Shown here piece by piece: positions 7,602 to 40,266 of a stretch of 58,437 nucleotides of DNA. The translations under genes were made by a program, and so were the position numbers. The first letter of the stretch is position 1, and every line of letters begins with the position of its first letter. The DNA lies in the NCBI GenBank assembly GCA_014650475.1, contig BMVA01000029.1, positions 1 to 58,437 of the forward strand, written 5' to 3'. This DNA comes from Streptomyces albogriseolus. GTDB taxonomy: Bacteria; Actinomycetota; Actinomycetes; Streptomycetales; Streptomycetaceae. The notes beneath the pieces were generated by a model. That model searched no databases. It worked only from the letters and a program-made list of their open reading frames with translations, and was not told where the DNA came from.

Positions 7602-8644
7602 CAGGCCCCCGCCGGAGCGCGGTAGCCGTAGTACTCGATCTCCTCGGCGAGTTCGGCATGCATCTCTGCCAGCCTCTTGTCGGGCAGCGAGGCCGTGCGG
7701 TCCTGAGACGGCTGAATCTCGGCACTGGCCTGGTCCAGCCAGTCGGTGTCGGGGGGCAGTTGAAGGAAGGCGCGCACCTCATCCAGCACCTGCCGCGGCT
7801 CGGCGACCAGACGCTCGTGCCGGACCATCACAACGCGATCGTCATCCAGGGCGACATCCCGCCAGGAGCGGAAATAGGCTGCCGTGTAGGCGGCGGCCTC
7901 GACCGGATCCGGTGGCCCCCAGTCTCGGCGCGTGTGCGACAGAGCGACATGCACCGGGTGACGTGCCATGACCACCACCCGGCACTCAGGCATCAATAAA
8001 CGCAGCCGACGAACGTACTGCGCGTTGCTCGGGGTCTTCTCGCACAGGAACGGACGTGAGGGATCCAGCGCGGCGGCCCGGAAAACAGAGGTCAGGAACG
8101 CAGCGAACAACGGGGCGAGTTCCCTCGACGACATCGGAGACGGCAAAGGCAGCCGCGGTCGGCCAACGAGCCGCACCGTACGGGCACCGAGACCGGCGAA
8201 GAGGCACTCAAGCGCTGCCTGTACCTCAGGCGTGTCGCCGAGCGTTTCCCGCACATGACCCGAAAAGCCCGCCAGAGCGGCACTGGCTGCGCCGGGCGTA
8301 TAACCGACGTCCGCATCGAGTATTGGCCAGAGCTCGCTGATCGCCTCCAGCATCCGCGTCTCGCCTCCGCTGACGGCACTCACCTGAGGATGGCTGCACA
8401 GCAGACGCTTGACCACACTGGTCCCCGTCCGCCCGTGCACGCCCCCGATGAAGAACGGCTGCGGCGCCGGACAAACCCCCTCGACGGACGTTCCCTGCAC
8501 GGTCGTTACCTCCAGACCAGCCAGTTCCATGCCATGCCACACTTCACTTGCCGGATCCAGACACACGGCCGTGTCCGAAGAACCGCATTGAATGAGGAGT
8601 GTCCCACTGACGGGGCATCGACTCCAGACCGCGTACCGGTGCAC
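7598..8644 (-). CDS. Sulfotransferase family protein, first gene of the operon
   Basis: This protein of up to 348 residues contains a classical sulfotransferase domain: FFIGGVHGRTGTSVVKRLL (5'-phosphosulfate loop), FLCEKTPSN, and CRVVVMARHPVHVALSHTRR (3'-phosphate loop). The GTG at 8644 gives the longest frame. An ATG at 8530 (MELAGLEVTT) is an alternative that removes 38 residues and still leaves the whole domain. I keep the longer form because the extra stretch looks coding, but the start is uncertain. It heads the seven-gene coupled operon, whose other sulfotransferase (2825-3658) is a separate, more divergent enzyme. Confidence 0.85.
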   Translation of the reverse strand: MHRYAVWSRCPVSGTLLIQCGSSDTAVCLDPASEVWHGMELAGLEVTTVQGTSVEGVCPAPQPFFIGGVHGRTGTSVVKRLLCSHPQVSAVSGGETRMLEAISELWPILDADVGYTPGAASAALAGFSGHVRETLGDTPEVQAALECLFAGLGARTVRLVGRPRLPLPSPMSSRELAPLFAAFLTSVFRAAALDPSRPFLCEKTPSNAQYVRRLRLLMPECRVVVMARHPVHVALSHTRRDWGPPDPVEAAAYTAAYFRSWRDVALDDDRVVMVRHERLVAEPRQVLDEVRAFLQLPPDTDWLDQASAEIQPSQDRTASLPDKRLAEMHAELAEEIEYYGYRAPAGAW

Positions 8645-8669
8645 AGGACCAACCCGACCTACCTGCCTG

Positions 8670-8876
8670 TCAGCTTTGGCAACGGCTCTTGCAGATTGGG
8701 CAGCTGAACGGCTTGCGGTGTACCGGCGGTGCGTCTTGGGCCCGCGGACAAAGCCGCTGCTTCACAATCCACTGCTCAAGGGAATAGGCTCCCGAACGCC
8801 GCCGAGTCGCCCGCAGTATCCTCCGTGAATGCTTCCCATTCTCGGTCGCAAGCATCGACAGCAACGCTGTCCCCAT
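8670..8876 (-). CDS. Possible small Cys-rich protein
   Basis: A 68-residue frame begins MGTALLSMLATENGKH and ends PFSCPICKSRCQS, a CxxC-x3-C tail that could bind zinc. It ends only 25 bp before the sulfotransferase start. No good ribosome site is visible and the start is uncertain, so it may not be translated. If real, it could be the first gene of the operon. Confidence 0.3.
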   Translation of the reverse strand: MGTALLSMLATENGKHSRRILRATRRRSGAYSLEQWIVKQRLCPRAQDAPPVHRKPFSCPICKSRCQS

Positions 8877-8908
8877 ATGAATCAGAGCCCACTCGGCGGA
8901 TATGACAA

Positions 8909-8951
8909 CGTCGGTCTTCAAGGCCGCCATTGGGCCTTGAAGACCGACGTC
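8909..8951. terminator. Perfect 18-bp hairpin
   Basis: The arms 8909-8926 and 8934-8951 are perfectly complementary (ACGTCGGTCTTCAAGGCC and its complement) around a 7-nt loop. It lies about 50 bp beyond the stop of the minus-strand membrane peptide gene at 9003, so it most likely ends that operon. There is no T-tract, as is common for Streptomyces terminators. Confidence 0.6.
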
Positions 8952-9002
8952 TATTCGTGTCTGTCCGGAGCTGTCGGCGCGGGGTGGAGCGGAGTCAGGG
9001 CA

Positions 9003-9170
9003 CTATTTCTTGCCGCGGAGCGCCTTCACCAAATCCACCACGATCCGCAGCGCTTCCGCGTCCGCATCCGGGCCGGCCTCGGTGATCGCCCGAACGACCC
9101 TCACCGCCGCTACAGAGACGATCAGTATGATCAGTACCGCTACCCCACCCGCCACGATCTCTACCGCCAT
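9003..9170 (-). CDS. Single-pass membrane peptide
   Basis: This 55-residue protein starts at the ATG at 9170 after a strong GGAGGA ribosome site. Residues 4-24 (EIVAGGVAVLIILIVSVAAV) form one transmembrane helix, followed by a charged, partly amphipathic cytoplasmic tail ending ALRGKK. It lies 82 bp downstream of the 477-residue gene on the same strand and may be the last gene of that operon. Small membrane peptides occur as effectors in many phage-defence systems, so it could be a membrane-acting output. That is inference; a chance housekeeping peptide is possible. Confidence 0.65.
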   Translation of the reverse strand: MAVEIVAGGVAVLIILIVSVAAVRVVRAITEAGPDADAEALRIVVDLVKALRGKK

Positions 9171-9251
9171 GTACGTCTCCTCCGCTGACTCGACTCGCCG
9201 TCGCAGAGGATTTGCGGTCCCAAGCAAGTGTTTGGGAGCGGTACGGGAAGC

Positions 9252-10685
9252 TCACGCAGGGAAAAGCGGGCGCAGTCGGCTCCATTCGGCAAGCGTTGGC
9301 CTCCACTCAGAGGAAGCCAACTGGGGATTGGCAGGATCTGGCGGCTCGTTGCCCGCGGCGGCCAGTGCCGCGCGAACCAGCCCGTCTACCCGGGCGGTGA
9401 GCGGATCGAGGCCGTGTTCTTCCTCGATCCGTGTGAGTCGCGCGGCGGTGTCCGCGCCGACGATTTCCGCCCACCGGACGAGTTGCCTGCGGTCGTCGCG
9501 CGCCAGGTGAGTGCGCAGGACCATAAGGTCGCGCACAGCTTGGCGTTCGGCGGCGGCTAGCGCAGCAGCTACCCCGCTGCGGACCGGGCTGGCCCACGCC
9601 GGGTGGTAGACATCAACATGGAGGCGGTCAGGGTGGACCGGTTCGCGGAGCCGGGCAGTGCCGCGCCAACTGGCGGCGCCGTGCTCCAGCGCTCCGATGG
9701 CGACCGGCAGCGGGCGCGTCGGCGTGTAGACCCGGAAAGCGAGGCGGTCGCCGACCGGATCGGCAACGTATTGGTCTGCGGCGTCGACGCCGACTTCGAT
9801 GCCGGTGTCCTCACCGCTGCCCTGCAGCCTCCAGCGGATGGCGCCTTCGTGCGAGGCCACGGCGTTCGGCGGTACCTGGGCCCAGTCCACGTCGGCAGTA
9901 CGCCAGCCGTCGGCCCGGCGCAGGGTGGTGCCTTCATAGGCTGGGACGCGCTCGATGAGCCGGCGCAGTTCGCTGTCCATGGTGTCGGCTGCGTTGTCCT
10001 CTCCCGCCTCGAGGCAGGCGCGGTCGGCGAGGTCGCGGAGCCGGGGCGCGAGCGGCAGGTCCTCGGCGAGGTGGGCGGTGGCGGTGAGTGCGTCGCGCAG
10101 GAGGGCGGCCACCCAGTGCTCGCCGGCCAGTACGCCGCGGTCCAGAACGGAGGTGGCGATGGCGGCGAGATCGGGGGCGCGGCGTACGAGGAGGTCGCGG
10201 GCGGTGTCCTCGGCGTCTTCCACCACGTCGGGCAGTGCGGCCAGCAGCGTGCCGGCCTCGATGTCCAGGAGGGCGGGGGAGAGAGGGAAGGGGGCCCAGC
10301 GGGCCAGCCACATCAGGACGGCCAGTCGTGCCAGAGGGGTGTGATGGAGACCGGGCCGCCACGGGGCACTGTCCCGGGCGAGTACCCGGCCGGCGGGGTC
10401 GTCAGCTGAGACCGGCACTTTGGCGGCGCTGCGGCGGGTGGCCCGAAGCGTGCGGGCGACGTCTTCGCCGTAAGCGAGCGGCAGCCAGGCGCCCTCGCCC
10501 TCGGTGGCGTCGACCTCGGCGTACGGGGCCAGGTCGGGGGCGAAGGGGTCGACGATCAAAAGGCCGCCACAGACGTACAGCGGTGCGCTGCGCGGGGCGG
10601 GGCCGGGATGATGGCCGAGCTGAGCGCGGCCAACGGTGTCGACGAGCACCGGGAGTGACCTGGTGATGGGCATCGCGTCAGTCAT
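9252..10685 (-). CDS. Unknown 477-residue protein of the STAND operon
   Basis: This protein starts at the ATG at 10685, in an ATGA overlap with the stop of the preceding gene. I do not recognise a domain. The N-terminal 120 residues look like alpha/beta (RSAPLYVCGGLLIVDPFAP). The middle is helical and rich in Ala, Leu and Asp. Residues about 265-360 contain beta-type repeats such as IRWRLQGSGEDTGIEVGVDA. The C-terminal third is helical. No signal peptide, membrane segment or obvious catalytic motif. Its tight coupling to the 595-residue gene suggests the two form a complex. Confidence 0.8.
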   Translation of the reverse strand: MTDAMPITRSLPVLVDTVGRAQLGHHPGPAPRSAPLYVCGGLLIVDPFAPDLAPYAEVDATEGEGAWLPLAYGEDVARTLRATRRSAAKVPVSADDPAGRVLARDSAPWRPGLHHTPLARLAVLMWLARWAPFPLSPALLDIEAGTLLAALPDVVEDAEDTARDLLVRRAPDLAAIATSVLDRGVLAGEHWVAALLRDALTATAHLAEDLPLAPRLRDLADRACLEAGEDNAADTMDSELRRLIERVPAYEGTTLRRADGWRTADVDWAQVPPNAVASHEGAIRWRLQGSGEDTGIEVGVDAADQYVADPVGDRLAFRVYTPTRPLPVAIGALEHGAASWRGTARLREPVHPDRLHVDVYHPAWASPVRSGVAAALAAAERQAVRDLMVLRTHLARDDRRQLVRWAEIVGADTAARLTRIEEEHGLDPLTARVDGLVRAALAAAGNEPPDPANPQLASSEWRPTLAEWSRLRPLFPA

Positions 10686-12469
10686 CGGAGGCCTCCGGCC
10701 TCGGGGCGGTATAGGGAACGGACGATGTCGCGGGCGGACTCGAATGGGACCGGTGGGAATGCAACGGGACCGCTATCTCCCTGGTGCTTGTGCTGGTACT
10801 CGGCGTACAACTCGCCCCAGGCGGGCTCGGCCCAGTCGTGGTGCAGGGGATCGATGAACCGATGGACCCAGTCGACGAGTTCGGCGCCGGTGGTACCGCG
10901 CTGCTCAAGGCCGTCGACGATCACGTCGACGACGATCTGGTGGGTGTGTGGTCCGCGGTAGAGGACTGGGGCGGTGCTGTCCGGGCCGGTGAGGTCGTCC
11001 GCCAGGTTCTCCAGCCTGTCCCCGGCGAGGTGCGCGTCTTGTTCTGCCTCGGCGGGTTTGGTGCCGCTCAGGACGAGTTTCAGTTCCCCGCGAAGCACTT
11101 GGAGGTAGCGGTTCGCTGCGGTGCGGATCAGCCGTATCCAGCGCTCGTCCGGGTTCGGCAGGTCTTCCTGCCGGATCTCGGCGCTGTGCAGCATTCGCCA
11201 CAGCAGCCGGGTGCAGCCGGGCAGCGGGTCTTCCAGCGCCCGGCGCACTGGGGCGTGCTGGGCGGCGCCGAGGCGCAGCGTCGTGGCGACGAAGGACTTG
11301 CGCTCCGTCAGTTCGGCCAGGTCGGTCAGCAGCCGGGGGACGGCGGTTCGCTTGGCGAGCAGGACGGCTGAGTGTTCGGCGCCTACGGCCGGGAAAGAGA
11401 CGATGCCGAGGCAGAGGACGGCACGCTGTTCGTCGTTGGCGAGGCCGAGGGCGGCCAGAGCCCGCCGCGCCTCCTCGTGGACCACTTCCCGCGCGGTCAG
11501 TCCGGCTGCGCTGGGGCAGGAGGCGAGAGTACGGACGGAGTGGTCCAGCCTGCGCCAGATCGAACGGTCCAGCGGCAAGACGGTGCTCTCGGAGTGTCCA
11601 AAGACCTCGCCGGCACAGTCCTGTTCCTCTTCCGCGCTGATGGTGAGAGGCGGGTCCTGCGAGGCGTCGCCGGGGCTGTCGTCCTGCCTGTCGTCTTGGA
11701 CGGTCGGTCGGGCGGGGACGGCGTGGCGGGACAGTCCGGTTGCGTGGACGGCCGTCAGGTGTCGCTCCCACGGACGCAGGAGGGTGTACCGGGCCCATAG
11801 CCGCTCCCAGTCGGCGCCGAGCGGGGCATCGAGGAGTAACGCTTCGGCATCCCGTACCGCTGCTGGGTCGCTGGTCGCCTCTGCGGCGGGGGTGAAGGCG
11901 GCGAGGATGTCGTCCAGCGCCTCTGTCTCCTCCTGCCGGGCGAACAAGGCCTTGAACGCGGCGTGGGTCGGGGGAGGGAAGTCCGGGTCGTCGTGAGCGA
12001 AGCTCTGGAACAGCAGCAGGCATTCGTCCGCGTCCACTGCGCGGTCCTCGGCGGACCGCGCCCAGGCGGCGGGGAAGATGCGGTGGGAGAGGGAGGACGC
12101 AGCCGCCGGGAGGGACTTGCCGGCGGCGGCACGCAGCCGCTTGACCTCCCCGCGTGCCGCCTTCAGGCCCTGCACCCAGTCGCCGGCGCGGTCCAACCGG
12201 GCTGACTGGCCCACGATGGCGGCGACCAGCTGCTCGGCCTGGGCGGCAGTCAACTCGCCGCGAGAATCGTGGCGGAGCACGGGGCGCAGCTCCAGGTTGG
12301 TGTCCCGAGCCACGTGGTAGAGCAGCCCTTCCCAGATCCGCTTGGTGTAGCCCCCTTTGGGGTTGAACTTGCACCGGGTGGCACGCGGTACCCGGTTCCA
12401 GGCGCGGGTCGCGGCGGTGACGACGGATTCCGTGTCGTCGCGCCGCCTGGCGGCATCGTCGCGGTTCAC
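10682..12469 (-). CDS. Unknown 595-residue helical protein of the STAND operon
   Basis: This protein starts at a GTG (12469) only 3 bp after the stop of the large NTPase gene and overlaps the next gene by 4 nt. It is predicted to be almost wholly alpha-helical, with an acidic low-complexity linker around residues 255-290 (VQDDRQDDSPGDASQDP). The N terminus is basic and tryptophan-containing (AATRAWNRVPRATRCKFNPK), and the C-terminal part carries HHDWAEPAWGELYAEYQHKH. I find no P-loop, nuclease or HTH motif. Function unknown; the operon structure argues that it acts with the upstream NTPase. Confidence 0.8.
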   Translation of the reverse strand: MNRDDAARRRDDTESVVTAATRAWNRVPRATRCKFNPKGGYTKRIWEGLLYHVARDTNLELRPVLRHDSRGELTAAQAEQLVAAIVGQSARLDRAGDWVQGLKAARGEVKRLRAAAGKSLPAAASSLSHRIFPAAWARSAEDRAVDADECLLLFQSFAHDDPDFPPPTHAAFKALFARQEETEALDDILAAFTPAAEATSDPAAVRDAEALLLDAPLGADWERLWARYTLLRPWERHLTAVHATGLSRHAVPARPTVQDDRQDDSPGDASQDPPLTISAEEEQDCAGEVFGHSESTVLPLDRSIWRRLDHSVRTLASCPSAAGLTAREVVHEEARRALAALGLANDEQRAVLCLGIVSFPAVGAEHSAVLLAKRTAVPRLLTDLAELTERKSFVATTLRLGAAQHAPVRRALEDPLPGCTRLLWRMLHSAEIRQEDLPNPDERWIRLIRTAANRYLQVLRGELKLVLSGTKPAEAEQDAHLAGDRLENLADDLTGPDSTAPVLYRGPHTHQIVVDVIVDGLEQRGTTGAELVDWVHRFIDPLHHDWAEPAWGELYAEYQHKHQGDSGPVAFPPVPFESARDIVRSLYRPEAGGLR

Positions 12470-12472
12470 AAG

Positions 12473-15400
12473 TCACCTTCCCCCGGTCGCTCGGGAAGCC
12501 TCCTCGACCAGACCGCGCAGCGACCGCAAGGCCGTGCGGACTTCGGCGAGGTAGCGGGTTGCGGAGAACGGCTGGTGCAGCGCATCCGCCAGGCCAACCG
12601 GATTGCCTCCGACCGTCTCCACCTGAACCTGGTAGGGCAAGGCGAGCCTGTGCAGGGCGGTGAAGTGCTGGCTGGGAGTGTAGATCGGGGTGGTGACGAG
12701 CAGCAGCCGGGCGCCGGGCCGCAGTCGTTCCATGCGCTCGGCGAAGAACGCGTAGGTGTCGCCGGTGTGCGCGCGGCGGGTGGCGGGATCGGAGGAGGGC
12801 GCGGCGGCGACTCGGACCGTTCCGCCACCGGGACGGTGATAGTGGCGTACGCCCCAGGTGCCGCCGATGTCCTGGGCGTGTTCGCCCTCGACGTGTTCTG
12901 GCTCCTCGAGCCGGAAGGCTGCGCGGGTACCGGCGTCCAGGGCCTGGTACTCCTCGGTGAGTTCGGGGTGGCCGATGCGGTCAGCGAGCCGGAACTCATC
13001 CTCCGCGGGGTCGGCGGAACTGCGGAAGGGCCGGTGGCCGCCCAGCGCGACGATGCTGGCGGTGCGCACCTGACCGGCGTCGCACAGCTGCGCTGCATAG
13101 GCGGGGCGGTTGAAGCAGGCGCGTACCAGGCCGCCGAGCAGCAGTACGTGGTCGTAGTCGGTGTGGCGCGGCGGCGGGCAGTCGTGCAGGCCGAGTGCCG
13201 CAGTGGCGGCAAGTACCACCTCCGTCTGCTGCGGTGTCAGCGGCAGGTCGGCGGCCTCGTTGCGCTCCTGGTTGGCGGCGCGGTTTTGCCAGCGCTCGCT
13301 GAACGCATACAGCATCTCGACACGTTCGGCGAGATCCACGTCGGAGTCGATGAGGGACTTCTCGTCGCCGTCGAAGGCCGTGACCAGAGCCCGCATGGCC
13401 TCGGAGCGGATCCAGTCGTCGACGGCGGGCAGGATAGCGTCGCCCGAGGCGGCCAGAGGGACAGTAGGGAAGTTGAGCGGCATAGTGCGTTTCTCGATTC
13501 CTGGATCACGGATGAAGCTCAGGGCGGGCAGGTAGGAGCACAGTGAGGTGTCGCGGTCGTATTCGTCGTTGTAGTGCTTCGCCCTCTTGCCGGGGTCGGC
13601 GTCGGCCGCAACAGACAGGCCTAGCCGGGCCAGTGCGATCCTGGCGCTGAGCGAGACGGACTTGAGGGTGTTGCCTCTGTCGACAGGGCCGTCCGAGTGC
13701 GCACGCAGTGCGTCGGCGGCGCTGGCGTGGCCGGCGGCCTCGCGCAGCCGGTTGATCCGTTGCTGATGGGACAGGGGCAGCAGCAGTGCCTCGTAGTAGG
13801 CGACGAGACCGAGACCGTTCACGCAGCAGGCGACCTCCTCAAGGTAACGGGTGCCAAGGCGACGCTCCCGAATCTCGAGAACTTCCTGGTAGACCGACCG
13901 TGCGAGATCCAGATGCTGTTTACAGCAGGCGGGATCGTCGTGCTTGGCCAGTTCGATGGACACACCCGCCAAGTTGAACTTGCTGCGGTCCAGGTCGGGG
14001 CTGTCCTTGTCACCGACGAGTTCGGCGCGGACGGCGGCGCTCCGTTGCAGCAGGCGCTCGGACTCACGGTAGGCAGCCAGCCGCGCCGCACCCTCCAGTG
14101 AGGCGCCGCGCTTCTTCAACAGCAGCCCGTACATGGCCTGGGCACGTGCGCCGGTGAGCCGGAAGGCATCACGCAGCAGCGGCTTGCCCGGGAGCTGGGC
14201 ACACAGGACGTCACACCGCTCCATCCAGCCGAGTGCCTCGGTCACCTGCCCGGGTGATGCCGCCGGATCCCGGTAGACCGCACGGGCGCTGCTGCGCAGC
14301 GCGTTGACGGTCATCAGCCGGGGCCCGGCGGGCCCGTCGGCGGCGGGCGCAGCATCGCGCAATTGGGCAACGATACGGGCGGCGGTCTTCTCGTCCTGGC
14401 GTTCGACAAGGCCAGCCAGCGCATGCAGTGCCCGAGTCGCAGCGGCCGAGTTGGGGTGCGCGCCGAGAAGATCCTCAAGAGCACCGGATGAGTCAGCGGT
14501 GCCGATATCCTCGGCGTCCAGCATGAGCCCGTACGGCACCGGGCTTTCCGCCGGGGGCATCGGCCCGCCGGCGTCGCACAGGATCGCGTGGCCGACCGCA
14601 TCGATTGACGCCCACAGCTCCTCCAGGACCGTCCCCAGCAGCGCGGCAGCGCCAGCGGCGTCCCGGGCACGCACATCATGACGGACGGCGGTACGCAGCA
14701 GCCGGTGCATGAGGACGCGGCCATCGCGCAGGTCAACCATGCCGAGCTGGCTAAGCCGCTGGGCTGCTTCCCACAGACGACCGGGCTCCGGCGCCCCGCC
14801 GTGCACAGCGGCAAGAGCGGTCGCGACGACCGGGGCGACCACGTCGAGGTCCAGGCCAGCCGGCGGCAGCCAGGCAAGGGCAGCGGCCAGCCCGAGGGCA
14901 GCCGCATCCTCGGCCTGGCCAGCGGCAAGCTCATCGCGAACAGCCGCCCACAGCACGTGCGGGGCCCCGTCAGCGGTGAGCCCGTCCCGGCCGGTCCACC
15001 AGTCCCGTCCGCCGGTCGCCTCACGGAACCGGTTGCTGGCGCTGACGAGCAGCGGCCGACCGTGCAGGGCTTCCAACGGAGCCTCGCGGCCGAGATGTTC
15101 CTTGACGTCCGCATCGGGCAACGGTTCGAGACGGTGCACCACGACGCCAGGGTGGTGGCCGAGCCACTCGGGTGCGGTGGTGGTCACGACAACCAGCTGG
15201 CCCTTGTGCGGCAGTGGCACCGGCATGTCCGTTAACTTGTCCGGGCCGACATCGACGTTGTCGAGAACGACCACCCAGGAACCCGGTGCCTCGCGCAGTC
15301 GCGCCTGGGCCAGCTTGGCGAAGGTCGCACGCGTCCCGCGGTCGATGGCGGACGGGTCAACGCCCTGCTCGGCCATCTCGGCGTCCCCCAGCTCGGCCGT

Positions 15401-16339
15401 CAGCACCGCCTGGTCGTTGGCGGCAAGGAACCAGCCAGAGCCGTACTGCGCTTTCGCCGCGATCTGATGTGCCAGCATCGACTTGCCGCTGCCCTGCTCG
15501 CCGTACAGGACGACGGTACCGGTGGCGCCCACGAGGTCGTCCACCAGCTTCTGCCGCGCGGCGTAAGGGTGGAAGCGGGGCCGAGCGGGGAGACGGCTCG
15601 TGATCGCGGGAGCGTTGGTCTCTGGGAGCGGTGCAAAGGGCGGGTAACCCTCGGTTTGCAGGGCGAGGATGTCGATCAGAACGATGTCGCGGTATCCGCT
15701 ACGCAGCATGAGCTCGCGGCCCTCGGCGCAGGCGGCCGCGAAGTCGGCATTGGGGTGGCGACACGCCTGCCTTACGTCGATCGCCAGCGCATCCGGGTCG
15801 AGGCCGGCGGCAGTCGGCATCCAGAAGTAGACGTGCGTCTCACCGGTACGCGGCGTGGCGCTGTCCAGTGGCCGCCAGGGGTGTCGGGCATCGGTGAGGT
15901 CCCGCACACCGCCGAGCTCGGGGACGCGCACCTTGGGGGCGATCAGGACCAGGGCGTGATCGGGCAGCCGCTCCTCTGGGTCACTCAGCAGCACGATGTA
16001 CGGGCGCAGTCGCTTGTGGAGGCACATCGACGCGTACAGCAGCGCCAGGTCGAGACAGGTAGCGCAACTGCGGTCCACCATCCGGATATCGCGGATGATC
16101 TGCTCCGAGCCTGTGTTCCACGGCACCTTCTCGTACGGCCTCTCCTTGTCGCGTAGCGCCTGGTACAGGTCGGCAAGCAGACGGTGCGTGTCCTCCTCAC
16201 GCTCGTGATGGCCGCCGTCCACCCACAGCCGGTGCCGGGTGAGCGCACCCACATCGGCGTTGGCGTAGCGCGCGAGACGCCGGTGGGCGTCCTCGACAGT
16301 GACGTCCCACGGCCCCCAGGCTCCCTGCATGCCATCCAT
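12473..16339 (-). CDS. Transglutaminase-like / P-loop STAND NTPase / TPR / YdcF-like fusion
   Basis: This 1288-residue protein is the core of the operon. Residues about 75-135 resemble a transglutaminase/papain-like fold: SCATCLDLALLYASMC (C95 candidate nucleophile) and LPDHALVLIA (H128). Residues 277-290 hold a Walker A loop (LYGEQGSGKSMLA) and 356-363 a Walker B (VVVLDNVD), in the order of STAND ATPases. A winged-helix-like region (MVDLRDGRVLMHRLLRTAVR) and a long helical TPR-like stretch follow. The last 240 residues look like a YdcF/DUF218 domain: DYDHVLLLGGLVRAC, IVALGGHRPF, and an SS-x-N/DT-like TGDTYAFFAE then LLLVTTPIYTPSQHF. The first ATG (16345) sits against the GAGGGGG site, so I start at the second one (16339). 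A sensor-NTPase of a conflict system is the likely role. Confidence 0.85.
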   Translation of the reverse strand: MDGMQGAWGPWDVTVEDAHRRLARYANADVGALTRHRLWVDGGHHEREEDTHRLLADLYQALRDKERPYEKVPWNTGSEQIIRDIRMVDRSCATCLDLALLYASMCLHKRLRPYIVLLSDPEERLPDHALVLIAPKVRVPELGGVRDLTDARHPWRPLDSATPRTGETHVYFWMPTAAGLDPDALAIDVRQACRHPNADFAAACAEGRELMLRSGYRDIVLIDILALQTEGYPPFAPLPETNAPAITSRLPARPRFHPYAARQKLVDDLVGATGTVVLYGEQGSGKSMLAHQIAAKAQYGSGWFLAANDQAVLTAELGDAEMAEQGVDPSAIDRGTRATFAKLAQARLREAPGSWVVVLDNVDVGPDKLTDMPVPLPHKGQLVVVTTTAPEWLGHHPGVVVHRLEPLPDADVKEHLGREAPLEALHGRPLLVSASNRFREATGGRDWWTGRDGLTADGAPHVLWAAVRDELAAGQAEDAAALGLAAALAWLPPAGLDLDVVAPVVATALAAVHGGAPEPGRLWEAAQRLSQLGMVDLRDGRVLMHRLLRTAVRHDVRARDAAGAAALLGTVLEELWASIDAVGHAILCDAGGPMPPAESPVPYGLMLDAEDIGTADSSGALEDLLGAHPNSAAATRALHALAGLVERQDEKTAARIVAQLRDAAPAADGPAGPRLMTVNALRSSARAVYRDPAASPGQVTEALGWMERCDVLCAQLPGKPLLRDAFRLTGARAQAMYGLLLKKRGASLEGAARLAAYRESERLLQRSAAVRAELVGDKDSPDLDRSKFNLAGVSIELAKHDDPACCKQHLDLARSVYQEVLEIRERRLGTRYLEEVACCVNGLGLVAYYEALLLPLSHQQRINRLREAAGHASAADALRAHSDGPVDRGNTLKSVSLSARIALARLGLSVAADADPGKRAKHYNDEYDRDTSLCSYLPALSFIRDPGIEKRTMPLNFPTVPLAASGDAILPAVDDWIRSEAMRALVTAFDGDEKSLIDSDVDLAERVEMLYAFSERWQNRAANQERNEAADLPLTPQQTEVVLAATAALGLHDCPPPRHTDYDHVLLLGGLVRACFNRPAYAAQLCDAGQVRTASIVALGGHRPFRSSADPAEDEFRLADRIGHPELTEEYQALDAGTRAAFRLEEPEHVEGEHAQDIGGTWGVRHYHRPGGGTVRVAAAPSSDPATRRAHTGDTYAFFAERMERLRPGARLLLVTTPIYTPSQHFTALHRLALPYQVQVETVGGNPVGLADALHQPFSATRYLAEVRTALRSLRGLVEEASRATGGR

Positions 16340-16500
16340 TTCCATCCCCCTCGCGGTGCGCATGCCGTACGTGGTGGTATTCCGCTCCCAAGAACTCGTC
16401 GTCCGGCGGCCTAGGTTCAGGACAGAGGCTGCCCGGTGCAGGACCAGCCGGCCCAGGAAGCCCTTGCGATAGCTGTGATGGACGACGGCTTGCCACGTGG

Positions 16501-17313
16501 TCAGATTGAGGTCTCCCACGCAGCGTTGAACAGGGCGCATTCGAGCAGGTCTGGGGTCGCACCAGGGGGCCACCCGTCGATGGCGGCCAGTTGGCGGGCG
16601 GCTTGATGAATAAAGGAGAGGTAGATCCCGTAGCGGTGAGGCGACCAGTTGCTGTCTGCCCACACCCAGGCGGCGATGGAGCCGGCCGGGTCGTGGCCGC
16701 TGTCCCGGCCTGCCGTAGCGGCCATCGAGCGCAGGCGCCGGGACACGACGCGGTCGAGGATGAGCGGTCGCGGGCCGTGAGCGGGCGACAGCGTGGCGCC
16801 GGCGAAGTACAGGAACTTGGTGAAGAAGGACGGCCCGAGCCCAGGAATCTGGCGGTACAGCGTGGTGTAGGCCGCTTGCGAGCCGTGCTCGTGCAGCGTG
16901 GTGACTGCACACGCCAGGGCCCCATCCAGACCCTCGGCGGCCAGGATCTTTCCCAGGGTGGCCGGTCCGCTGCCGCCGGGGGTGCCACGTTTGCCCTTGC
17001 CCCACACGTACGTTGCGACCAGGGCCTCGCGGAAGGAATCACGCCGCAGCGCGTCGGCGACGGTCGAGGTCACCTCCGCCCGGCTGATTGCGGCATCACC
17101 GCCGACGGAGGTGAGGGCCAGCGTCGACGGCCACGGAGCGATCCGTGCCCACCGGCTGGGGGTGTAGCGGACCGTGTGCGCGCCCGGCGTGCCGTCGGCG
17201 TAGACCCCCGCGTGTTCCGTCCACCAGTGGCCCAGCGCGTGCACGGCGGCATCGGGCAGTAGGCGTGCGGCCATCTCCCGGTCCACCGCGTCGGCGTGAT
17301 CTTGTCTGTTCAC
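16501..17313 (-). CDS. 8-oxoguanine DNA glycosylase OGG-fold protein
   Basis: This 270-residue protein starts at a GTG (17313) after a G-rich leader. It matches the OGG-fold family found in actinobacterial accessory regions: TYVWGKGKRGTPGG at 101-114, the helix-hairpin-helix-like IPGLGPSFFTKFLYFAG at 156-172, and LILDRVVSRRLR downstream. Bona fide glycosylases flip damaged bases. Here the family may instead recognise altered nucleotides or DNA. It leads the operon whose next gene is the large NTPase, with 161 bp between. It is divergent from the gene at 17491 and probably shares its promoter region. Enzyme activity is not proven. Confidence 0.78.
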   Translation of the reverse strand: MNRQDHADAVDREMAARLLPDAAVHALGHWWTEHAGVYADGTPGAHTVRYTPSRWARIAPWPSTLALTSVGGDAAISRAEVTSTVADALRRDSFREALVATYVWGKGKRGTPGGSGPATLGKILAAEGLDGALACAVTTLHEHGSQAAYTTLYRQIPGLGPSFFTKFLYFAGATLSPAHGPRPLILDRVVSRRLRSMAATAGRDSGHDPAGSIAAWVWADSNWSPHRYGIYLSFIHQAARQLAAIDGWPPGATPDLLECALFNAAWETSI

Positions 17314-17490
17314 CCTCCACCCCCCAAGACGCTTTCCCTGACCGGCCGCCGGCCAGGCCGCGGTCTGTGCCGGGCGCCGGTCCGGCGGCGCTGCTTCCCA
17401 CGCAGCTGGCCCCGGCCCACCAGTGTCCTTTGCGGAGAGGCCCGGAGAACCATATTGCGCTCGAAGCATTTTTTTGCGACTGTCGTAAAC

Positions 17491-17913
17491 ATGGATTTGA
17501 TTGGTGATCTCGCAGCCATCCGCGTCCCCCTGCCACAGCCTGGTGACGTCACGCCGGAGGAGCTCTACCCCGACGCCCTCGAAGAGGCCGAACAGGCCCG
17601 TGAGAACTACGCCCTCTCCCTCGAAGCACAGCACGACGACCTGCAGGAAGACCCCCTGCTGATCGCTCTCGGCAACGCCCGCGCCGCCCGCGAGGCCGCC
17701 GATCGCGAAATCCGCCATCTCCTCGCCTACGGCCGCGAGTTCCACGGCGAGCGCCCCTACAAGCTCGAACCCCTCGCCCGGGCCAGCGGCATGACCCCCT
17801 CCGGCATCCGCACCGCCTACGGCAGCAGCGAGATCGAAACCGTCACCCGCTGCATCGGCCGCACGCCTGACAGCCGCCGCGCCCGACCTCCGGCCACGCC
17901 GCAGCCCTCATGA
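17491..17913 (+). CDS. Small HTH-like protein of unknown function
   Basis: This 140-residue protein begins MDLIGDLAAIRVPLPQPGD. An acidic coiled-coil-like helix (residues about 25-75, rich in Glu and Ala) is followed by a segment LEPLARASGMTPSGIRTAYG that looks like a helix-turn-helix. The ATG has no clear ribosome site and follows a T7 run, so the mRNA may be leaderless or very short-leadered. It is divergent from the OGG-fold gene and overlaps the next gene by 4 nt. A small DNA-binding protein that could regulate the neighbouring operon is a reasonable guess. Confidence 0.7.
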   Translation: MDLIGDLAAIRVPLPQPGDVTPEELYPDALEEAEQARENYALSLEAQHDDLQEDPLLIALGNARAAREAADREIRHLLAYGREFHGERPYKLEPLARASGMTPSGIRTAYGSSEIETVTRCIGRTPDSRRARPPATPQPS

Positions 17914-18122
17914 GCAAACACCTCGAAACCGCTGCACCGGCCTGCACCTGTGTGCCGCCGTGGCCCGCCCTGACCACCCTCATCGAGGGCACGACCCACC
18001 CGGTCGTGCCCGCCTCCACTCACACTCCAGTCTCCGCCCTCTACCTCGCCCGCTGCACCGGATGCGGCGCCGCCTACACCGGCCCGTGGAAGCGACTGCC
18101 CTGCTCATCCCGCGCCGCCTGA
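17910..18122 (+). CDS. Small Cys-containing protein, possibly zinc-binding
   Basis: This 70-residue protein starts at an ATG overlapping the previous stop (ATGA). It contains CTC early and ARCTGCGAAYTGPWKRLPC near the end, a Cys pattern (C-x2-C ... C) that could bind zinc. The last 75 bp recur, with about 80 percent identity, at 19828-19902 beyond the AlbA_2 gene, in broken form. Function unknown. Confidence 0.65.
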   Translation: MSKHLETAAPACTCVPPWPALTTLIEGTTHPVVPASTHTPVSALYLARCTGCGAAYTGPWKRLPCSSRAA

Positions 18123-18261
18123 GAGCACGGTCCGGGGCGGGGCAGCCGCCCGCCCGGGCGTCGCTGTGCCCCGGGGGCGAGTGCCATCCCGGCTGCTCTG
18201 GGCGGCGCCGGGCCGAACCGGCGGGACCGCGTTGTCGGTGCTCCGCCGTAGGGTTTCGGGC

Positions 18262-19530
18262 ATGCCCCGTTCCTGGACGCGTCTGCATGAGCACCTCGGT
18301 GTGCCGCCCGGCCCGCTGACCTTCGACATGGTGAAGAAGGCCGCCGAGGACCATCTCGCGGAGTCGGATGATCTGGACTGGAAGGAGCAGTTGCCGCAGC
18401 CGCCGCGGGACGGCCGCTTCAACGAGCTGGCCAAGGACGTCGCCGCGATGGCCAACACCCGCGGCGGGCTGCTCATCTACGGCGTCACGGACCAGGACAC
18501 GAAGCCGGTCGGCATCGACCCCGACGAGGTCAGCACCCAGCAGTACGCGCAGTGGATCCGCAACCACGTCCAGCCCTACCTGCCCGATGTCACCTTCACC
18601 GTCCTGTCCTCGTCCGACGGTGCCATCAGCTTCCTGGTCATCGACGTGCCCGCCAGCCCCATGGCCCCGCACCACGTGTACGGCACTGCCGCCAAGGACA
18701 AGGACCAGCAGGCCGCCGTCGTCCCCTACCGCGACCGTGACCACACTGCCTGGATGGCCGAGCACCAGATCGAACGCGCCTACCGCGACCGCTTCACCCG
18801 CGCCCAGCACGCCCAGAAGGAAACCGACCGGCTCTTCGCCCACGCCCGGGAGAACGTCCTGGCCGAACAGGCCGAGCCGTCGGCCTGGTTCATCGCCGTC
18901 GCCCGGCCCGACCGGCCGCTGCCGCGTACCGCCGAACCTCTGACTCAAGAGGCGGCCGCCTACCTCCGCAGTACGGCGAACGCCAGCTCCCAGGCTCTGG
19001 CGCGAGGTCACGTCGTCGGCCCGCTGCGGACTTTGGAGACTGTCTCCAATCCCCGTCCCGGACTGCGCTGTTGGGTCTTCAGCACCCTGTATCCGATCCT
19101 GGGCCGGGGAGTTTACGCGGAGCTGCACTACGACGGCAGCATGGTCTTGGCCGCCGACCTGTCCTGGAAGGCCCTGCGAGGCGGCCCGGCCGGTCCCGAG
19201 GCGACGGGCATCCTGGTCGACGCGGACGTTGTCGGCGCCGCCTGCCGCGACACCCTCGTTCTCGTCCGCGAACTCGCCCGCCGTCTGGGCGTGGACAGTG
19301 CCATCCCCGTGACGGTGGCCATCGCCACCGCCGAACCGGCGCCCATGACGCCCATCGTCACCGAGTACGCCAGCTTCAGGAGCATCCCCGACCATGCCCG
19401 CCGGCCCCGCCGCATTCAGCCGGTGACTGTCCTGGTGACCCCCGCTGACGAGGACGGCCTCCTGCGTACGAGCGCCCAGGAGGCCTTCACCGACCTGATG
19501 CACCAGTTCGGTATCACCGTCTCGTTGTAG
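18262..19530 (+). CDS. AlbA_2 / Schlafen-like domain protein
   Basis: This 422-residue protein begins MPRSWTRLHEHLG. Residues about 25-135 are an AlbA_2 (Schlafen-type, divergent AAA-4) domain: the acidic-Lys strand DDLDWKEQLP, then ELAKDVAAMANTRGGLLIYG-VTD, the hallmark of the family. Bacterial AlbA_2 proteins are linked to nucleic-acid processing, transcription control and phage defence. The C-terminal 250 residues are unknown alpha/beta. I chose the ATG at 18262 because the conserved domain begins soon after and the upstream frame has no coding character. It is a single gene ended by the hairpin at 19553. Confidence 0.85.
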   Translation: MPRSWTRLHEHLGVPPGPLTFDMVKKAAEDHLAESDDLDWKEQLPQPPRDGRFNELAKDVAAMANTRGGLLIYGVTDQDTKPVGIDPDEVSTQQYAQWIRNHVQPYLPDVTFTVLSSSDGAISFLVIDVPASPMAPHHVYGTAAKDKDQQAAVVPYRDRDHTAWMAEHQIERAYRDRFTRAQHAQKETDRLFAHARENVLAEQAEPSAWFIAVARPDRPLPRTAEPLTQEAAAYLRSTANASSQALARGHVVGPLRTLETVSNPRPGLRCWVFSTLYPILGRGVYAELHYDGSMVLAADLSWKALRGGPAGPEATGILVDADVVGAACRDTLVLVRELARRLGVDSAIPVTVAIATAEPAPMTPIVTEYASFRSIPDHARRPRRIQPVTVLVTPADEDGLLRTSAQEAFTDLMHQFGITVSL

Positions 19531-20027: not shown

Positions 20028-21164
20028 TCACGGGGCCGGCTTTTGATGCCGAGCGAGGAGGTCGGTGAAGAAGTCCGTCAGGACGCGTTCACCGCCCGCA
20101 CCGGTCAGTTCCCAGCCGCCGAAGCGGTAGATCTCGTATCCGGCGAGCCGGAGCCGGCGGTCTTCGGCGACCATCTCCGCGTACAGCTGCGGCGCGGCGG
20201 TATGAGTGACCCGCCCGTGCTCGTCGGGCGGGTTGGGGCGGCCGTAGTGCTGCACCCCGTCGACCTCGATGACGATGCGAGAGCGATCCGGTGCCAGGAG
20301 CAAAAAGTCCATCCGCTGCCGGTACAGCGCCCCGGACTGCTGGCCGCTGCGCCGTGTGTAGGGGTCGTAGTGGAGATAGACCTGCGGGATCAGTGCGGGC
20401 AGGTCGAAGCCGCCGTCCTCGGCGTAGCGAGCACAGTAGGTGATCATGAGGAGTTGTTCGGGCGGTGAGTCCAGTGACCGGTAAAGGCGCCGGTAGAGGG
20501 TGTCGGCGGCGCTCTTCTCGTCGGCGTCGGGCTGGTGGTTGGCCGTCCACCAGGCGACCATCTGCCGCCAGGTGAGCCCGTGCGGCGGCAGGGGATCGGT
20601 GAAGACCAGGCAGGTGTCGGCGTGGCGGACGATCTCCACGTCGTTGTTCACCGCGTCGCGCAGCACGATCTGCGGTTTTGCGCCGTCGGCGGCGAAGATC
20701 AGGTTCTTGAAGGTGCCCGACGGCCCCTTGGAGAAGCGGCGTTCGTATTCCAGCTCCTGCAGGTCCTCCAGCGCGTCGCGGGTCGGGCCGAGGATCTGCT
20801 CGATGCAGTCCCGGCGGGCCTGCCAGCTGCCCCGCATGTCGTTGTCGCGCCAGTAGGTGCCGAAGCCGCGCGGCCCCTCGAACGTCCGAAACGGCCAGGC
20901 GGGCGGCTTGAGGGCGAGGCGTTCCAGGACGGCGCGGTGGGCCTTGATGACGACGGGGACGGTCTCGTCATCAAGGTGCCTGCCCTTGCCGTCGGTGCCG
21001 TGGGAGACGAAGTCGTGGTGCAGAAGCCGGGTCAGCGCGATGGCGACCTCCAGGTCGGTGCGGCCGGCCGGAGGGCCGAACCGCAGCGACTCGATCAGCT
21101 CGACATCGAGCACCCACGGCTGGGCCCATCCGTCCCCGCTGCTGAAGAACGCCTCAACGTCCAC
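20028..21164 (-). CDS. AbiJ-related protein with nuclease-like C terminus
   Basis: This 378-residue protein starts at a GTG (21164). The N-terminal half (RTDLEVAIALTRLLHHDFVS, then GSWQARRDCIEQILGP) resembles proteins annotated as AbiJ-related, named after a lactococcal abortive-infection protein. The C-terminal 100 residues look like a Vsr/DUF559-type PD-(D/E)XK nuclease: D286 in RQRMDFLLL, E300-V-D302 in IVIEVDGVQHYG, and EDRRLRLAGYEIYRFGG. It stands 246 bp downstream of the helicase-nuclease gene on the same strand and may be part of that group or a separate defence gene. Cleavage activity is inferred from the motif. Confidence 0.8.
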   Translation of the reverse strand: MDVEAFFSSGDGWAQPWVLDVELIESLRFGPPAGRTDLEVAIALTRLLHHDFVSHGTDGKGRHLDDETVPVVIKAHRAVLERLALKPPAWPFRTFEGPRGFGTYWRDNDMRGSWQARRDCIEQILGPTRDALEDLQELEYERRFSKGPSGTFKNLIFAADGAKPQIVLRDAVNNDVEIVRHADTCLVFTDPLPPHGLTWRQMVAWWTANHQPDADEKSAADTLYRRLYRSLDSPPEQLLMITYCARYAEDGGFDLPALIPQVYLHYDPYTRRSGQQSGALYRQRMDFLLLAPDRSRIVIEVDGVQHYGRPNPPDEHGRVTHTAAPQLYAEMVAEDRRLRLAGYEIYRFGGWELTGAGGERVLTDFFTDLLARHQKPAP

Positions 21165-38206: not shown

Positions 38207-39460
38207 GTGGTGATCAGCGTGGAGGACTGGGCGGAGATCCGTCGGCTTCATCGGGCCGAACAGATGCCGGTACGGGCGATCGCGAGGAAGCTGGGGATCG
38301 CCAGGAACACCGTTCGCAGAGCGATCGCGGACGACGCGCCGCCGAAGTATCAGCGGGCGCCGAAGGGTTCGATCGTGGATGCGGTCGAGCCGCAGATTCG
38401 TGAACTGCTCGAGCAATGGCCGGAGATGTCGGCGACGGTGATCGCGGAGCGGATCGGATGGGACCGCGGTCTGACCGTGCTCAAGGACCGGGTCCGGGAC
38501 CTGCGGCCGGTCTATCGGCCTGCGGATCCGGCCTCGCGGACCGTCTATGAGCCGGGCGAGATCGGCCAGTGCGACCTGTGGTTCCCGCCCGCCGACATCC
38601 CGCTCGGCTTCGGTCAGGTCGGGCGGCCGCCGGTGCTGGTCATGGTCGCGGGCTACTCGCGGTGGATCACTGCCCGGATGCTGCCCTCCAGGTCGGCGGC
38701 CGACCTGATCGCCGGGCACTGGCGGCTGCTGACCGAGCTGGGCGCCGTCCCGCGGGTGCTGGTCTGGGACAACGAGGGAGCCGTCGGTTCCTGGCGGTCC
38801 GGAGGTCCCCGACTGACGGACGACTTCGCTGCGTTCGCGGGGCTACTGGGCGTCAAATTCCTGCTCTGCAAGCCCCGTGATCCGGAGGCCAAGGGCCTGG
38901 TCGAGCGGGCCAACGGCTATCTCGAGACATCGTTCCTGCCCGGGCGGGTGTTCACCTCGCCGGCGGACTTCAATATTCAGCTCGCCGACTGGCTGACCAG
39001 GGCGAACCGGCGCATCCACCGGACCTTGCAGGCTCGCCCAACGGACCGGCTGGAAGCGGATCGCTCCCGGATGCTGGCCTTGCCGCCGGTCGCCCCGCCG
39101 GGCTGGTGGAAGGCATCCCTGCGGCTGCCTCGGGATCACTACGTCCGTCTGGACACATGCGACTACTCGGTGCATCCGCTGGCCGTCGGCCGCCGCGTCG
39201 AGGTCGCCGCCGACCTGGACCAGGTGCTGGTGACCTGCGACGGCGTCGAGGTCGCCCGCCATGCCCGCAGCTGGGCTCGCCACCAGACCATCACCGACCC
39301 GGACCACGCGGCCGCTGCCGCTGCCGCCCGCGAGGCGGCCACCGGCCCGAAGCCGGCGCCGGTGGACATGGCGGAGGTCGAGGAGCGGTCGCTGGAGACC
39401 TACGACCGGATCTTCGGCGTGATCGACGGCGGGCTGAGCACAGGCGAAGGGGCAGCGTAA
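38207..39460 (+). CDS. istA: IS21 transposase IstA
   Basis: This 417-residue protein has an N-terminal helix-turn-helix (MPVRAIARKLGIARNTVRRA) and a DDE integrase core: Asp in IGQCDLWFPP, Asp in VLVWDNEGAV, Glu in AKGLVERANGY. The length is normal for IstA. It carries out the strand transfer of the element. Its TAA stop shares one base with the ATG of istB, so translation is coupled. No frameshift or truncation was seen, so the element looks intact. Confidence 0.93.
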   Translation: MVISVEDWAEIRRLHRAEQMPVRAIARKLGIARNTVRRAIADDAPPKYQRAPKGSIVDAVEPQIRELLEQWPEMSATVIAERIGWDRGLTVLKDRVRDLRPVYRPADPASRTVYEPGEIGQCDLWFPPADIPLGFGQVGRPPVLVMVAGYSRWITARMLPSRSAADLIAGHWRLLTELGAVPRVLVWDNEGAVGSWRSGGPRLTDDFAAFAGLLGVKFLLCKPRDPEAKGLVERANGYLETSFLPGRVFTSPADFNIQLADWLTRANRRIHRTLQARPTDRLEADRSRMLALPPVAPPGWWKASLRLPRDHYVRLDTCDYSVHPLAVGRRVEVAADLDQVLVTCDGVEVARHARSWARHQTITDPDHAAAAAAAREAATGPKPAPVDMAEVEERSLETYDRIFGVIDGGLSTGEGAA

Positions 39461-40266
39461 TGAGCACGAAGAACGGCACGAACCAGGCCAGGACCAGCCG
39501 CGACGTCGGCTCCGAACTGATCTATCTGACCAAGGCACTGAAGGCCCCGGCCCTGCGCGATGCGGCAGCCCGGCTCGCCGAGCGGGCTCGCGACGAGGGC
39601 TGGAGCCATGAGGAGTATCTGGCCGCATGCCTGCAGCGGGAGGTCGCTGCCCGTGACTCCCATGGCGCCGAGGGACGCATCCGGGCAGCTCGATTCCCCT
39701 CCCGCAAGTCGCTGGAGGACTTCGATTTCGACCACCAGCGGTCTGTGAAACGCGAAGTCATCGCCCATCTGGGGACGCTGGACTTCGTCGCCGGAAAGGA
39801 GAACGTGATCTTTCTGGGACCGCCCGGCACCGGCAAAACCCACCTCGCCACCGGGCTCGGCATCCGGGCCTGCCAGGCCGGCCATCGAGTCGCCTTCGGC
39901 ACCGCCGCCCAGTGGGTCACCCGCCTCGCCGAAGCCCATCAGGCCGGGCGTCTGAGCGACGAGTTGACCCGGCTGGGACGAATCCCGCTGATCGTGGTCG
40001 ACGAAGTGGGTTACATCCCCTTCGAACCCGAGGCCGCGAACCTCTTCTTCCAGTTCATCTCGGGCCGCTACGAACGCGCCTCCGTGATCGTGACGAGCAA
40101 CAAGCCCTTCGGACGCTGGGGCGAGGTCTTCGGCGACGACACCGTTGCCGCCGCGATGATCGACCGACTCGTCCACCATGCCGAGGTGATCTCGCTGAAG
40201 GGCGACAGCTACCGCATGCGCGGCCGCGACCTCGGACGGGTTCCCGCCGCCAACTCCGGGGAATGA
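39460..40266 (+). CDS. istB: IS21 helper ATPase IstB
   Basis: This 268-residue AAA+ ATPase has Walker A GPPGTGKTHLATGL, Walker B LIVVDEVGYIPF, and sensor-like VIVTSNKPFGRWGE. IstB is the target-selection partner of IstA. It starts at the ATG overlapping the istA stop (TAATG) and has the family length. Confidence 0.93.
   Translation: MSTKNGTNQARTSRDVGSELIYLTKALKAPALRDAAARLAERARDEGWSHEEYLAACLQREVAARDSHGAEGRIRAARFPSRKSLEDFDFDHQRSVKREVIAHLGTLDFVAGKENVIFLGPPGTGKTHLATGLGIRACQAGHRVAFGTAAQWVTRLAEAHQAGRLSDELTRLGRIPLIVVDEVGYIPFEPEAANLFFQFISGRYERASVIVTSNKPFGRWGEVFGDDTVAAAMIDRLVHHAEVISLKGDSYRMRGRDLGRVPAANSGE

What the first reader, a model, noticed from the sequence alone, without database searches (positions are those of the whole stretch)
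9003..17313. Candidate undescribed conflict system: OGG-fold / transglutaminase-STAND-TPR-YdcF protein / two unknown proteins / membrane peptide
Seen: five minus-strand genes, with the 1288-, 595- and 477-residue genes separated by 3 bp or overlapping by 4 nt. The large protein joins a transglutaminase-like Cys/His region, a P-loop NTPase core and a TPR-like region to a YdcF/DUF218-like end. Known: STAND NTPases with TPR sensors are common in phage defence, and OGG-fold proteins occur in such islands. Inference: the NTPase senses a trigger, the OGG-fold protein reads DNA or nucleotides, and the 595/477 pair and peptide act with it. I know of no named defence system with this gene set.
Basis: partly seen in the sequence, partly recalled or inferred. 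Interest (0 to 1): 0.86.

Follow-up and report, generated by a model that had tools for sequence, protein, structure and literature searches.

The report
Rare protease-switch operon in Streptomyces
A soil bacterium carries a rare three-gene operon whose giant protein seems to join a protein-cutting domain to an ATP-driven switch and a nucleotide-binding-like tail, perhaps a self-destruct or phage-defence device, while the DNA-repair-like gene beside it is most likely just a neighbour.

Summary
The genes are real. The core is three coupled minus-strand genes: P0001 (1288 aa), P0003 (595 aa, 3-nt gap), P0004 (477 aa, 4-nt overlap); a 55-aa one-helix peptide follows after 81 nt. The OGG-family gene is genuine (PF21790, 4e-51) but 161 nt upstream; none of 7 relatives' plasmid loci read carries the core, so it is probably a neighbour. 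P0001 = transglutaminase-like Cys/His region (C95, H128), STAND-like NTPase (K286, D360), weak TPR-like region, DUF218-like module. The N-terminal family occurs in large Streptomyces STAND-type proteins, one passing Pfam Transglut_core. The C-terminal module exists as standalone proteins at 8 places: 2 beside Trypco1 and trypsin-NB-ARC-TPR genes, 1 behind a Rhodococcus CHAT peptidase gene. Two ~480-aa genes precede that CHAT gene; P0004 resembles the second (above 197 of 197 natural controls), but shuffles of another protein score as high, so this is only a lead. P0003 has no proven relative. Best reading: a rare, undescribed variant of actinobacterial peptidase-STAND conflict systems: sensing assembles the NTPase, which switches on the cysteine peptidase against P0003/P0004 or the membrane peptide. 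Mechanism and phage defence are inferred.

The parts
12473..16339 (-). P0001, 1288-aa transglutaminase-like/STAND-like NTPase/TPR-like/DUF218-like protein
   Evidence: ORF and translation; one match in own genome, no stops
15710..16339 (-). P0001 residues 1-210: transglutaminase-like Cys/His region (C95, H128, D159)
   Evidence: Aligned with six relatives; profile vs Transglut_core proteins 26.3 against a maximum of 17.7 in 30 column shuffles and 16.9 against DUF218 as cross-control; relative L042 just passes the PF01841 cut-off; residue numbers
14990..15571 (-). P0001 about residues 257-450: P-loop NTPase, Walker A GEQGSGKS (K286), Walker B VVVLDNVD (D360)
   Evidence: Pfam AAA_25 27.8 bits over cut-off 27, 29.3 for the N-terminal piece; motif positions; borders by eye
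13505..14422 (-). P0001 about residues 640-945: TPR-like helical region (weak, borders by eye)
   Evidence: TPR_10 at 756-782, E 0.006, below cut-off
12473..13483 (-). P0001 residues 953-1288: DUF218-like module, also found as standalone 307-340 aa proteins
   Evidence: 27-52% identity to standalone proteins; AlphaFold model pLDDT 82.9, pTM 0.86; one of 7 family members hits PF02698 at E 0.0011, under cut-off
10682..12469 (-). P0003, 595-aa protein of unknown family
   Evidence: ORF; 3 nt after P0001; no match of weight in Pfam, PADLOC, NCBIfam or PHROGs
9252..10685 (-). P0004, 477-aa protein of unknown family; uncertain remote likeness to the 480-aa gene of Rhodococcus CHAT loci
   Evidence: ORF; overlaps P0003 by 4 nt; hhalign 25.8, above 197 of 197 natural proteins and 100 of 100 of its own shuffles, but a shuffle of P0003 reaches 26.9 against the same profile
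9003..9170 (-). P0005, 55-aa single-helix membrane peptide
   Evidence: Translation; hydropathy 2.97 over residues 5-23; GGAGGAG before ATG; no relative in plasmids; not called by my gene score
16501..17313 (-). OGG-family protein (PF21790), probably a neighbour and not a component
   Evidence: PF21790 E 4.3e-51; no other component in the 7 relatives' loci read

Best explanation
The three-gene core (P0001-P0003-P0004, perhaps with the membrane peptide P0005) is a rare variant of the actinobacterial peptidase-STAND conflict systems. Most likely working: the TPR-like region and DUF218-like tail of P0001 detect an invader- or stress-derived protein or nucleotide; the NTPase exchanges nucleotide and oligomerises; this switches on the N-terminal transglutaminase-like cysteine peptidase, which cuts P0003 and/or P0004 (substrate or scaffold) and ends in growth arrest or membrane damage, possibly through P0005. 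Shown here: the genes, their coupling, the domains as far as sequence goes, and that each end of P0001 is a module also found in, or at some places beside, peptidase-STAND-type or CHAT genes in other actinobacteria. Inferred: every step of the mechanism, the trigger, and that phages are the target.
For: Coupled ORFs. NTPase over Pfam cut-off. N-terminal region shared with six 920-1870 aa STAND-type proteins of same-genus genomes; the same stretch is part of NCBIfam's anti-phage protein ProA model (P0001 E 4.7e-4; relative L043 E 1.7e-14); its Cys aligns with the transglutaminase Cys and relative L042 passes Transglut_core. DUF218-like module: of 8 standalone loci, 2 sit beside Trypco1 + trypsin-NB-ARC-TPR (G007 by Pfam; S. 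curacoi by 84% and 93% identity), 1 beside Trypco1 alone, 1 behind a CHAT gene that follows a 479/480-aa gene pair overlapping by 4 nt. P0004 scores above 197 of 197 natural controls against that 480-aa family. PDC-S28 helicase nearby.
Against: No full-length relative of P0001 in 100 other genus genomes, none of P0003 in 178, none of P0004 in 235. P0003 against the 479-aa family is reached by 7 of 197 natural controls and 3 of 100 shuffles. The P0004 margin is thin (25.8 against 24.8); its hhalign probability is 2.5% and P-value 0.018; shuffles of P0003 reach 26.9 against the same profile; and a search with that profile did not find P0004 in its own genome. Of the 8 standalone DUF218-like loci, 5 have no peptidase gene in view: 2 with nothing of the kind, 1 with Trypco1 only, 1 with an 804-aa unknown, 1 Nocardia locus. 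P0001 itself has no Transglut_core, TPR or DUF218 match over cut-off, and STAND-specific profiles stay below theirs.
Confidence: 0.45

Rival explanations
1. A five-gene system, in which the OGG-family protein reads DNA or a modified base and signals to the STAND-like protein.
For: Same strand, 161 nt upstream; PF21790 match 4.3e-51.
Against: 0 of 7 OGG plasmid loci read (of 15 records found) hold P0001/P0003/P0004/P0005 relatives; 0 of 22 other loci hold OGG. In 3 of the 6 annotated OGG loci a 'Helicase associated domain' gene lies close by instead.
Confidence: 0.12
2. A signalling or developmental regulator of Streptomyces with no defence role: STAND-TPR proteins often regulate (recalled), and the DUF218-like tail could be metabolic.
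For: Five of the 8 standalone DUF218-like genes lie at one chromosomal site beside a 1104-1268 aa gene that I read by eye as sucA.
Against: Very rare distribution, no DNA-binding domain match in the core proteins, neighbourhood with defence-type genes.
Confidence: 0.25
3. A decayed or chance neighbourhood: P0001 is a one-off fusion and P0003/P0004 are unrelated cargo.
For: No conserved gene order found by direct search; the P0004 link to Rhodococcus is within reach of noise.
Against: 3-nt gap, 4-nt overlap and intact long frames; codon-position GC above threshold for all three.
Confidence: 0.18

Closest known systems
Peptidase-STAND and related conflict systems with Trypco1, trypsin or alpha/beta-hydrolase partners (Kaur et al. 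2020, PMC7159879; passages seen)
   Same: Signalling peptidase domains tied to NTPase systems of multicellular bacteria; transglutaminase-like peptidases are named there as rare N-terminal domains of the VMAP component.
   Different: No vWA, MoxR-type or Trypco match over cut-off in the nine window proteins; DUF218-like fusion; P0003/P0004 pair. The words YdcF and DUF218 do not occur in that paper's main text.
Large transglutaminase-like/STAND-type proteins of same-genus genomes (L016-L018, L039, L042, L043)
   Same: N-terminal Cys/His region followed by an NTPase.
   Different: A hydrolase-like gene stands directly in front (Pfam LCAT in L016; by eye in the other five); no match to the DUF218-like tail, P0003 or P0004 was found in these loci.
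Rhodococcus plasmid gene row of unknown, ~480-aa and CHAT genes (pYYL1.1, DN22 p4, pNSL1)
   Same: Two unknown genes and a cysteine peptidase (CHAT) in a row; a DUF218-like gene follows in pYYL1.1.
   Different: Peptidase is CHAT with no fused NTPase; relation of P0003 not shown, of P0004 uncertain.
CARD-NLR / LypABC (PMC13236601, passages seen)
   Same: Peptidase plus NLR-like ATPase with TPR-like repeats; rare; peptidase and Walker residues are needed there.
   Different: Trypsin-like peptidases, on proteins other than the NLR-like one, and CARD-like domains; no trypsin match in the nine window proteins.

Membership tests
STAND/P-loop NTPase | Walker A and B, P-loop domain score | tested here: met
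   GEQGSGKS 280-287, VVVLDNVD 356-363; AAA_25 over cut-off
STAND/P-loop NTPase | STAND-specific profile (NB-ARC, NACHT, nSTAND) over cut-off | tested here: not met
   NACHT 20.7 of 26.7, NB-ARC 13.4 of 23.5, nSTAND3 16.6 of 27.2 bits for residues 1-343: STAND-like, not a proven member
Transglutaminase-like (PF01841) | Pfam cut-off for P0001 itself | tested here: not met
   no PF01841 match up to E 2 in residues 1-343
Transglutaminase-like (PF01841) | membership through relatives, catalytic Cys aligned | tested here: met
   profile score 26.3 against a maximum of 17.7 in 30 shuffles (14 of 25 extracted transglutaminase stretches used, chosen by a pattern that includes the Cys); L042 relative 23.5 of 23 bits
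Transglutaminase-like (PF01841) | proteolytic or crosslinking activity | not testable with these tools
   -
DUF218/YdcF (PF02698) | Pfam or profile match | tested here: inconclusive
   1 of 7 members at 19.4 of 27.6 bits; profile-profile 16.9, inside the shuffle range up to 17.7; motif likeness by eye to DUF218 proteins; PDB fold searches inconclusive
OGG-like (PF21790) | Pfam cut-off | tested here: met
   173.9 bits, cut-off 27
NCBIfam anti-phage ProA (NF058533) | cut-off 1500 bits over 1903 positions | tested here: not met
   17.6 bits over 77 positions
CATRA system | CATRA-C (PF20270) protein | tested here: not met
   own genome 0 matches; P0003 and P0004 gave no signal against the one same-genus CATRA protein found
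MoxR-vWA ternary systems | MoxR and vWA genes in the operon | tested here: not met
   none over cut-off among the five genes and four upstream neighbours; genes left of 9003 were not scanned
Any PADLOC system | full-length profile match of one of the five proteins | tested here: not met
   only short P-loop matches of P0001, none for the other four
Anti-phage system | protection against phage | not testable with these tools
   -

The most novel reading that the evidence does not exclude
The window shows one form of an undescribed actinobacterial immune system built from a fast-evolving protein pair (P0003/P0004 and the 479/480-aa Rhodococcus pair), a DUF218-like nucleotide-binding protein, and an interchangeable cysteine peptidase: CHAT on separate genes in Rhodococcus, transglutaminase-like and fused through a STAND-TPR switch here. 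The DUF218-like module would be a new kind of sensor or signal enzyme in bacterial immunity.
Probability: 0.2. Interest if true: 0.72.

Novelty: new variant of a known kind. Interest (0 to 1): 0.5.

Why it matters
If true, it adds a protein architecture (cysteine peptidase-NTPase-repeat-DUF218-like) to the bacterial relatives of animal and plant NLR immune switches, and gives a lead on DUF218-like proteins outside envelope biology, where the papers listed place ElyC and SanA. It also gives the unknown genes next to CHAT on Rhodococcus plasmids a testable context. My literature searches (open-licence PMC, listings of at most 20 papers each) showed no description of such a gene set, and none listed a paper on the anti-phage protein ProA.

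Tried and rejected

Limits: in multi-genome searches with proteins only the best 6 to 11 candidates a genome were scored, so divergent relatives can have been missed; itself warned that its empty answer, without a genome known to match, shows nothing.

Full report
What is there. The window is contig C29 of an 8.07 Mb, 66-contig genome. Three genomes given as the same genus (G049, G059, G061) have contigs of the same lengths as named Streptomyces records, so the genus is Streptomyces. On the minus strand lie, in order of transcription, an OGG-family gene (16501-17313), P0001 (12473-16339), P0003 (10682-12469), P0004 (9252-10685) and a 55-residue peptide (9003-9170). P0001 and P0003 are 3 nt apart, P0003 and P0004 overlap by 4 nt. 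OGG ends 161 nt before the P0001 start that I favour; the frame is open further upstream and my own gene score chose 16519. The peptide starts 81 nt after P0004 and has GGAGGAG in front of its ATG, but my gene score does not call it. In 8600-18400 no sigma-70 promoter pattern and one terminator pattern, inside P0004, were found (2.7 expected).

P0001, front. Residues 257-363 contain a P-loop NTPase: Pfam AAA_25 27.8 bits over a cut-off of 27, Walker A 280-287 and Walker B 356-363. STAND-specific profiles stay below their cut-offs, so it is STAND-like by motif and layout only. Residues 1-210 match the N-termini of six large proteins from 5 of 178 other same-genus genomes (L016, L017, L018, L039, L042, L043). 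Of these L016 was scanned with Pfam: TPR_12 over cut-off, NTPase profiles just below. In all six loci the gene directly in front (354-495 aa as called) looks like an alpha/beta hydrolase by eye; only that of L016 was scanned with Pfam (LCAT). The shared motif is T-C-L-D-L, then A (S in one), with C95 in P0001, and later a His (H128). The family profile scores 26.3 against transglutaminase-core proteins; 30 column shuffles reach at most 17.7, and the cross-controls give 16.9 and 18.8. The N-terminus of L042 passes Pfam Transglut_core (23.5 bits, cut-off 23); P0001 alone does not. The same stretch belongs to NCBIfam's anti-phage ProA model (P0001 E 4.7e-4; L042, L043, L016 and L039 E 1.7e-14 to 4.7e-8), of which P0001 is not a member.

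P0001, tail. Residues 953-1288 are a separable module. Full P0001 in 101 genomes matched this region in 4 of the 100 others; a pattern scan of 84,980 species genomes gave 5 loci, three of them the same genomes; plasmids gave two more. That makes 8 distinct standalone loci. In G007 and S. curacoi the gene stands beside Trypco1 and a trypsin-NB-ARC-TPR gene (84% and 93% identity), in Streptomyces sp. cf386 beside Trypco1 alone, in S. cyaneochromogenes and NRRL WC-3605 beside neither, in PsTaAH-137 before an 804-aa unknown protein. In Rhodococcus ruber pYYL1.1 it follows a CHAT gene; in Nocardia pPE-7 I saw no CHAT or trypsin gene in the annotation. The first five are one chromosomal site and not five independent cases. 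The AlphaFold model is confident (pLDDT 82.9, pTM 0.86), with alternating strands and helices, but PDB searches are inconclusive. The DUF218 name rests on one of seven members hitting PF02698 at E 0.0011 below cut-off and on motif likeness by eye; the profile comparison did not beat shuffles (16.9 against 17.7).

P0003 and P0004. Neither has a match of weight in Pfam, PADLOC, NCBIfam or PHROGs. P0003 was found in 0 of 178 other genus genomes and 0 of 198 others in a partly overlapping set of relatives; P0004 in 0 of 235 other class genomes; neither is in plasmids. The Rhodococcus DUF218-like locus pointed to a row seen in three plasmids: a 441-539 aa gene, a 473-481 aa gene and a CHAT gene (CHAT by Pfam in two, by annotation in DN22). 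Against the alignment of the three ~480-aa proteins P0004 scores 25.8, aligned over almost its whole length, above all 197 natural control proteins (best 24.8) and all 100 of its own shuffles (best 22.6); but a shuffle of P0003 reaches 26.9 against the same profile, and a search of 236 class genomes with that profile did not find P0004 in its own genome. P0003 against the first-gene family scores 21.9, which 7 of 197 controls and 3 of 100 shuffles reach. So the P0004 link is a lead, and a P0003 link is not shown.

OGG. The protein is a clear PF21790 member. Relatives lie on 15 plasmid records. I read 7 of these loci: none contains relatives of P0001, P0003, P0004 or P0005 at E 0.01, and none of 22 other loci (19 distinct places, one of them a CATRA locus) contains OGG at E 0.001. 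In three of the six loci that carry gene annotation a 'Helicase associated domain' gene is near. I therefore leave OGG out of the system, as more likely than not.

Surroundings. Upstream of OGG lie a Schlafen AlbA_2 gene (18166-19530), a gene with a weak AbiJ_NTD3 match (20028-21164) and a helicase that matches PADLOC's phage-defence candidate PDC-S28 with 997 bits (21411-23933). Eight further window proteins gave no PADLOC match. This is compatible with a defence setting and does not prove one.

How it probably works. By analogy with peptidase-NTPase systems (Kaur et al. 2020, PMC7159879, passages; LypABC, PMC13236601, passages; nuclease-protease pairs, PMC12799240, abstract and outline; PMC8195603, passages), the C-terminal half senses, the NTPase assembles, and the N-terminal cysteine peptidase is released to act. 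P0003/P0004 are the natural candidates for substrate or partner, and P0005 for a membrane-acting end point. All of this is inference. CATRA, ProA and MoxR-vWA systems were tested and not met.

Verdict. It is a new variant of a known kind; a wholly new system is possible but would rest on the uncertain P0004 link.

Noticed in passing
window 21411-23933 (-): Helicase-type protein matching PADLOC phage-defence candidate PDC-S28 over almost its full length (997 bits).
   Followed up: no
window 20028-21164 (-): 378-aa protein with a weak AbiJ_NTD3 match (E 0.006, below cut-off) and, by eye, a nuclease-like C-terminal end.
   Followed up: no
window 18166-19530 (+): Schlafen AlbA_2 domain protein (PF04326 55 bits), weak PDC-S50 match.
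   Followed up: no
L024 4315-8572, L025 7608-11822, L026 7070-11567: Rhodococcus plasmids share a three-gene row: unknown 441-539 aa, unknown 473-481 aa, CHAT peptidase, with TPR genes nearby; no family names for the first two.
   Followed up: partly
L019, L028, L029, L027, L030: One chromosomal Streptomyces site in which a DUF218-like gene is accompanied by Trypco1 plus trypsin-NB-ARC-TPR, by Trypco1 alone, or by neither, as if a system were being gained or lost.
   Followed up: partly
L016, L017, L018, L039, L042, L043: Hydrolase-like gene followed by a large transglutaminase-like/STAND-type gene: six loci in 5 of 178 other same-genus genomes; the N-terminal stretch is shared with NCBIfam's anti-phage ProA model.
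   Followed up: partly
L106 8001-10334: An OGG-family match in two pieces about 1.5 kb apart on a Streptomyces griseorubiginosus plasmid.
   Followed up: no
L022 7267-9681: 804-aa protein after a DUF218-like gene; its C-terminal half may resemble 461/445-aa proteins near the Rhodococcus and Nocardia DUF218-like genes (26.6; own shuffles to 23.6, another protein's shuffles to 26.0).
   Followed up: partly
window 38207-40266 (+): Two genes that look by eye like an IS21-type transposase pair; not scanned.
   Followed up: no
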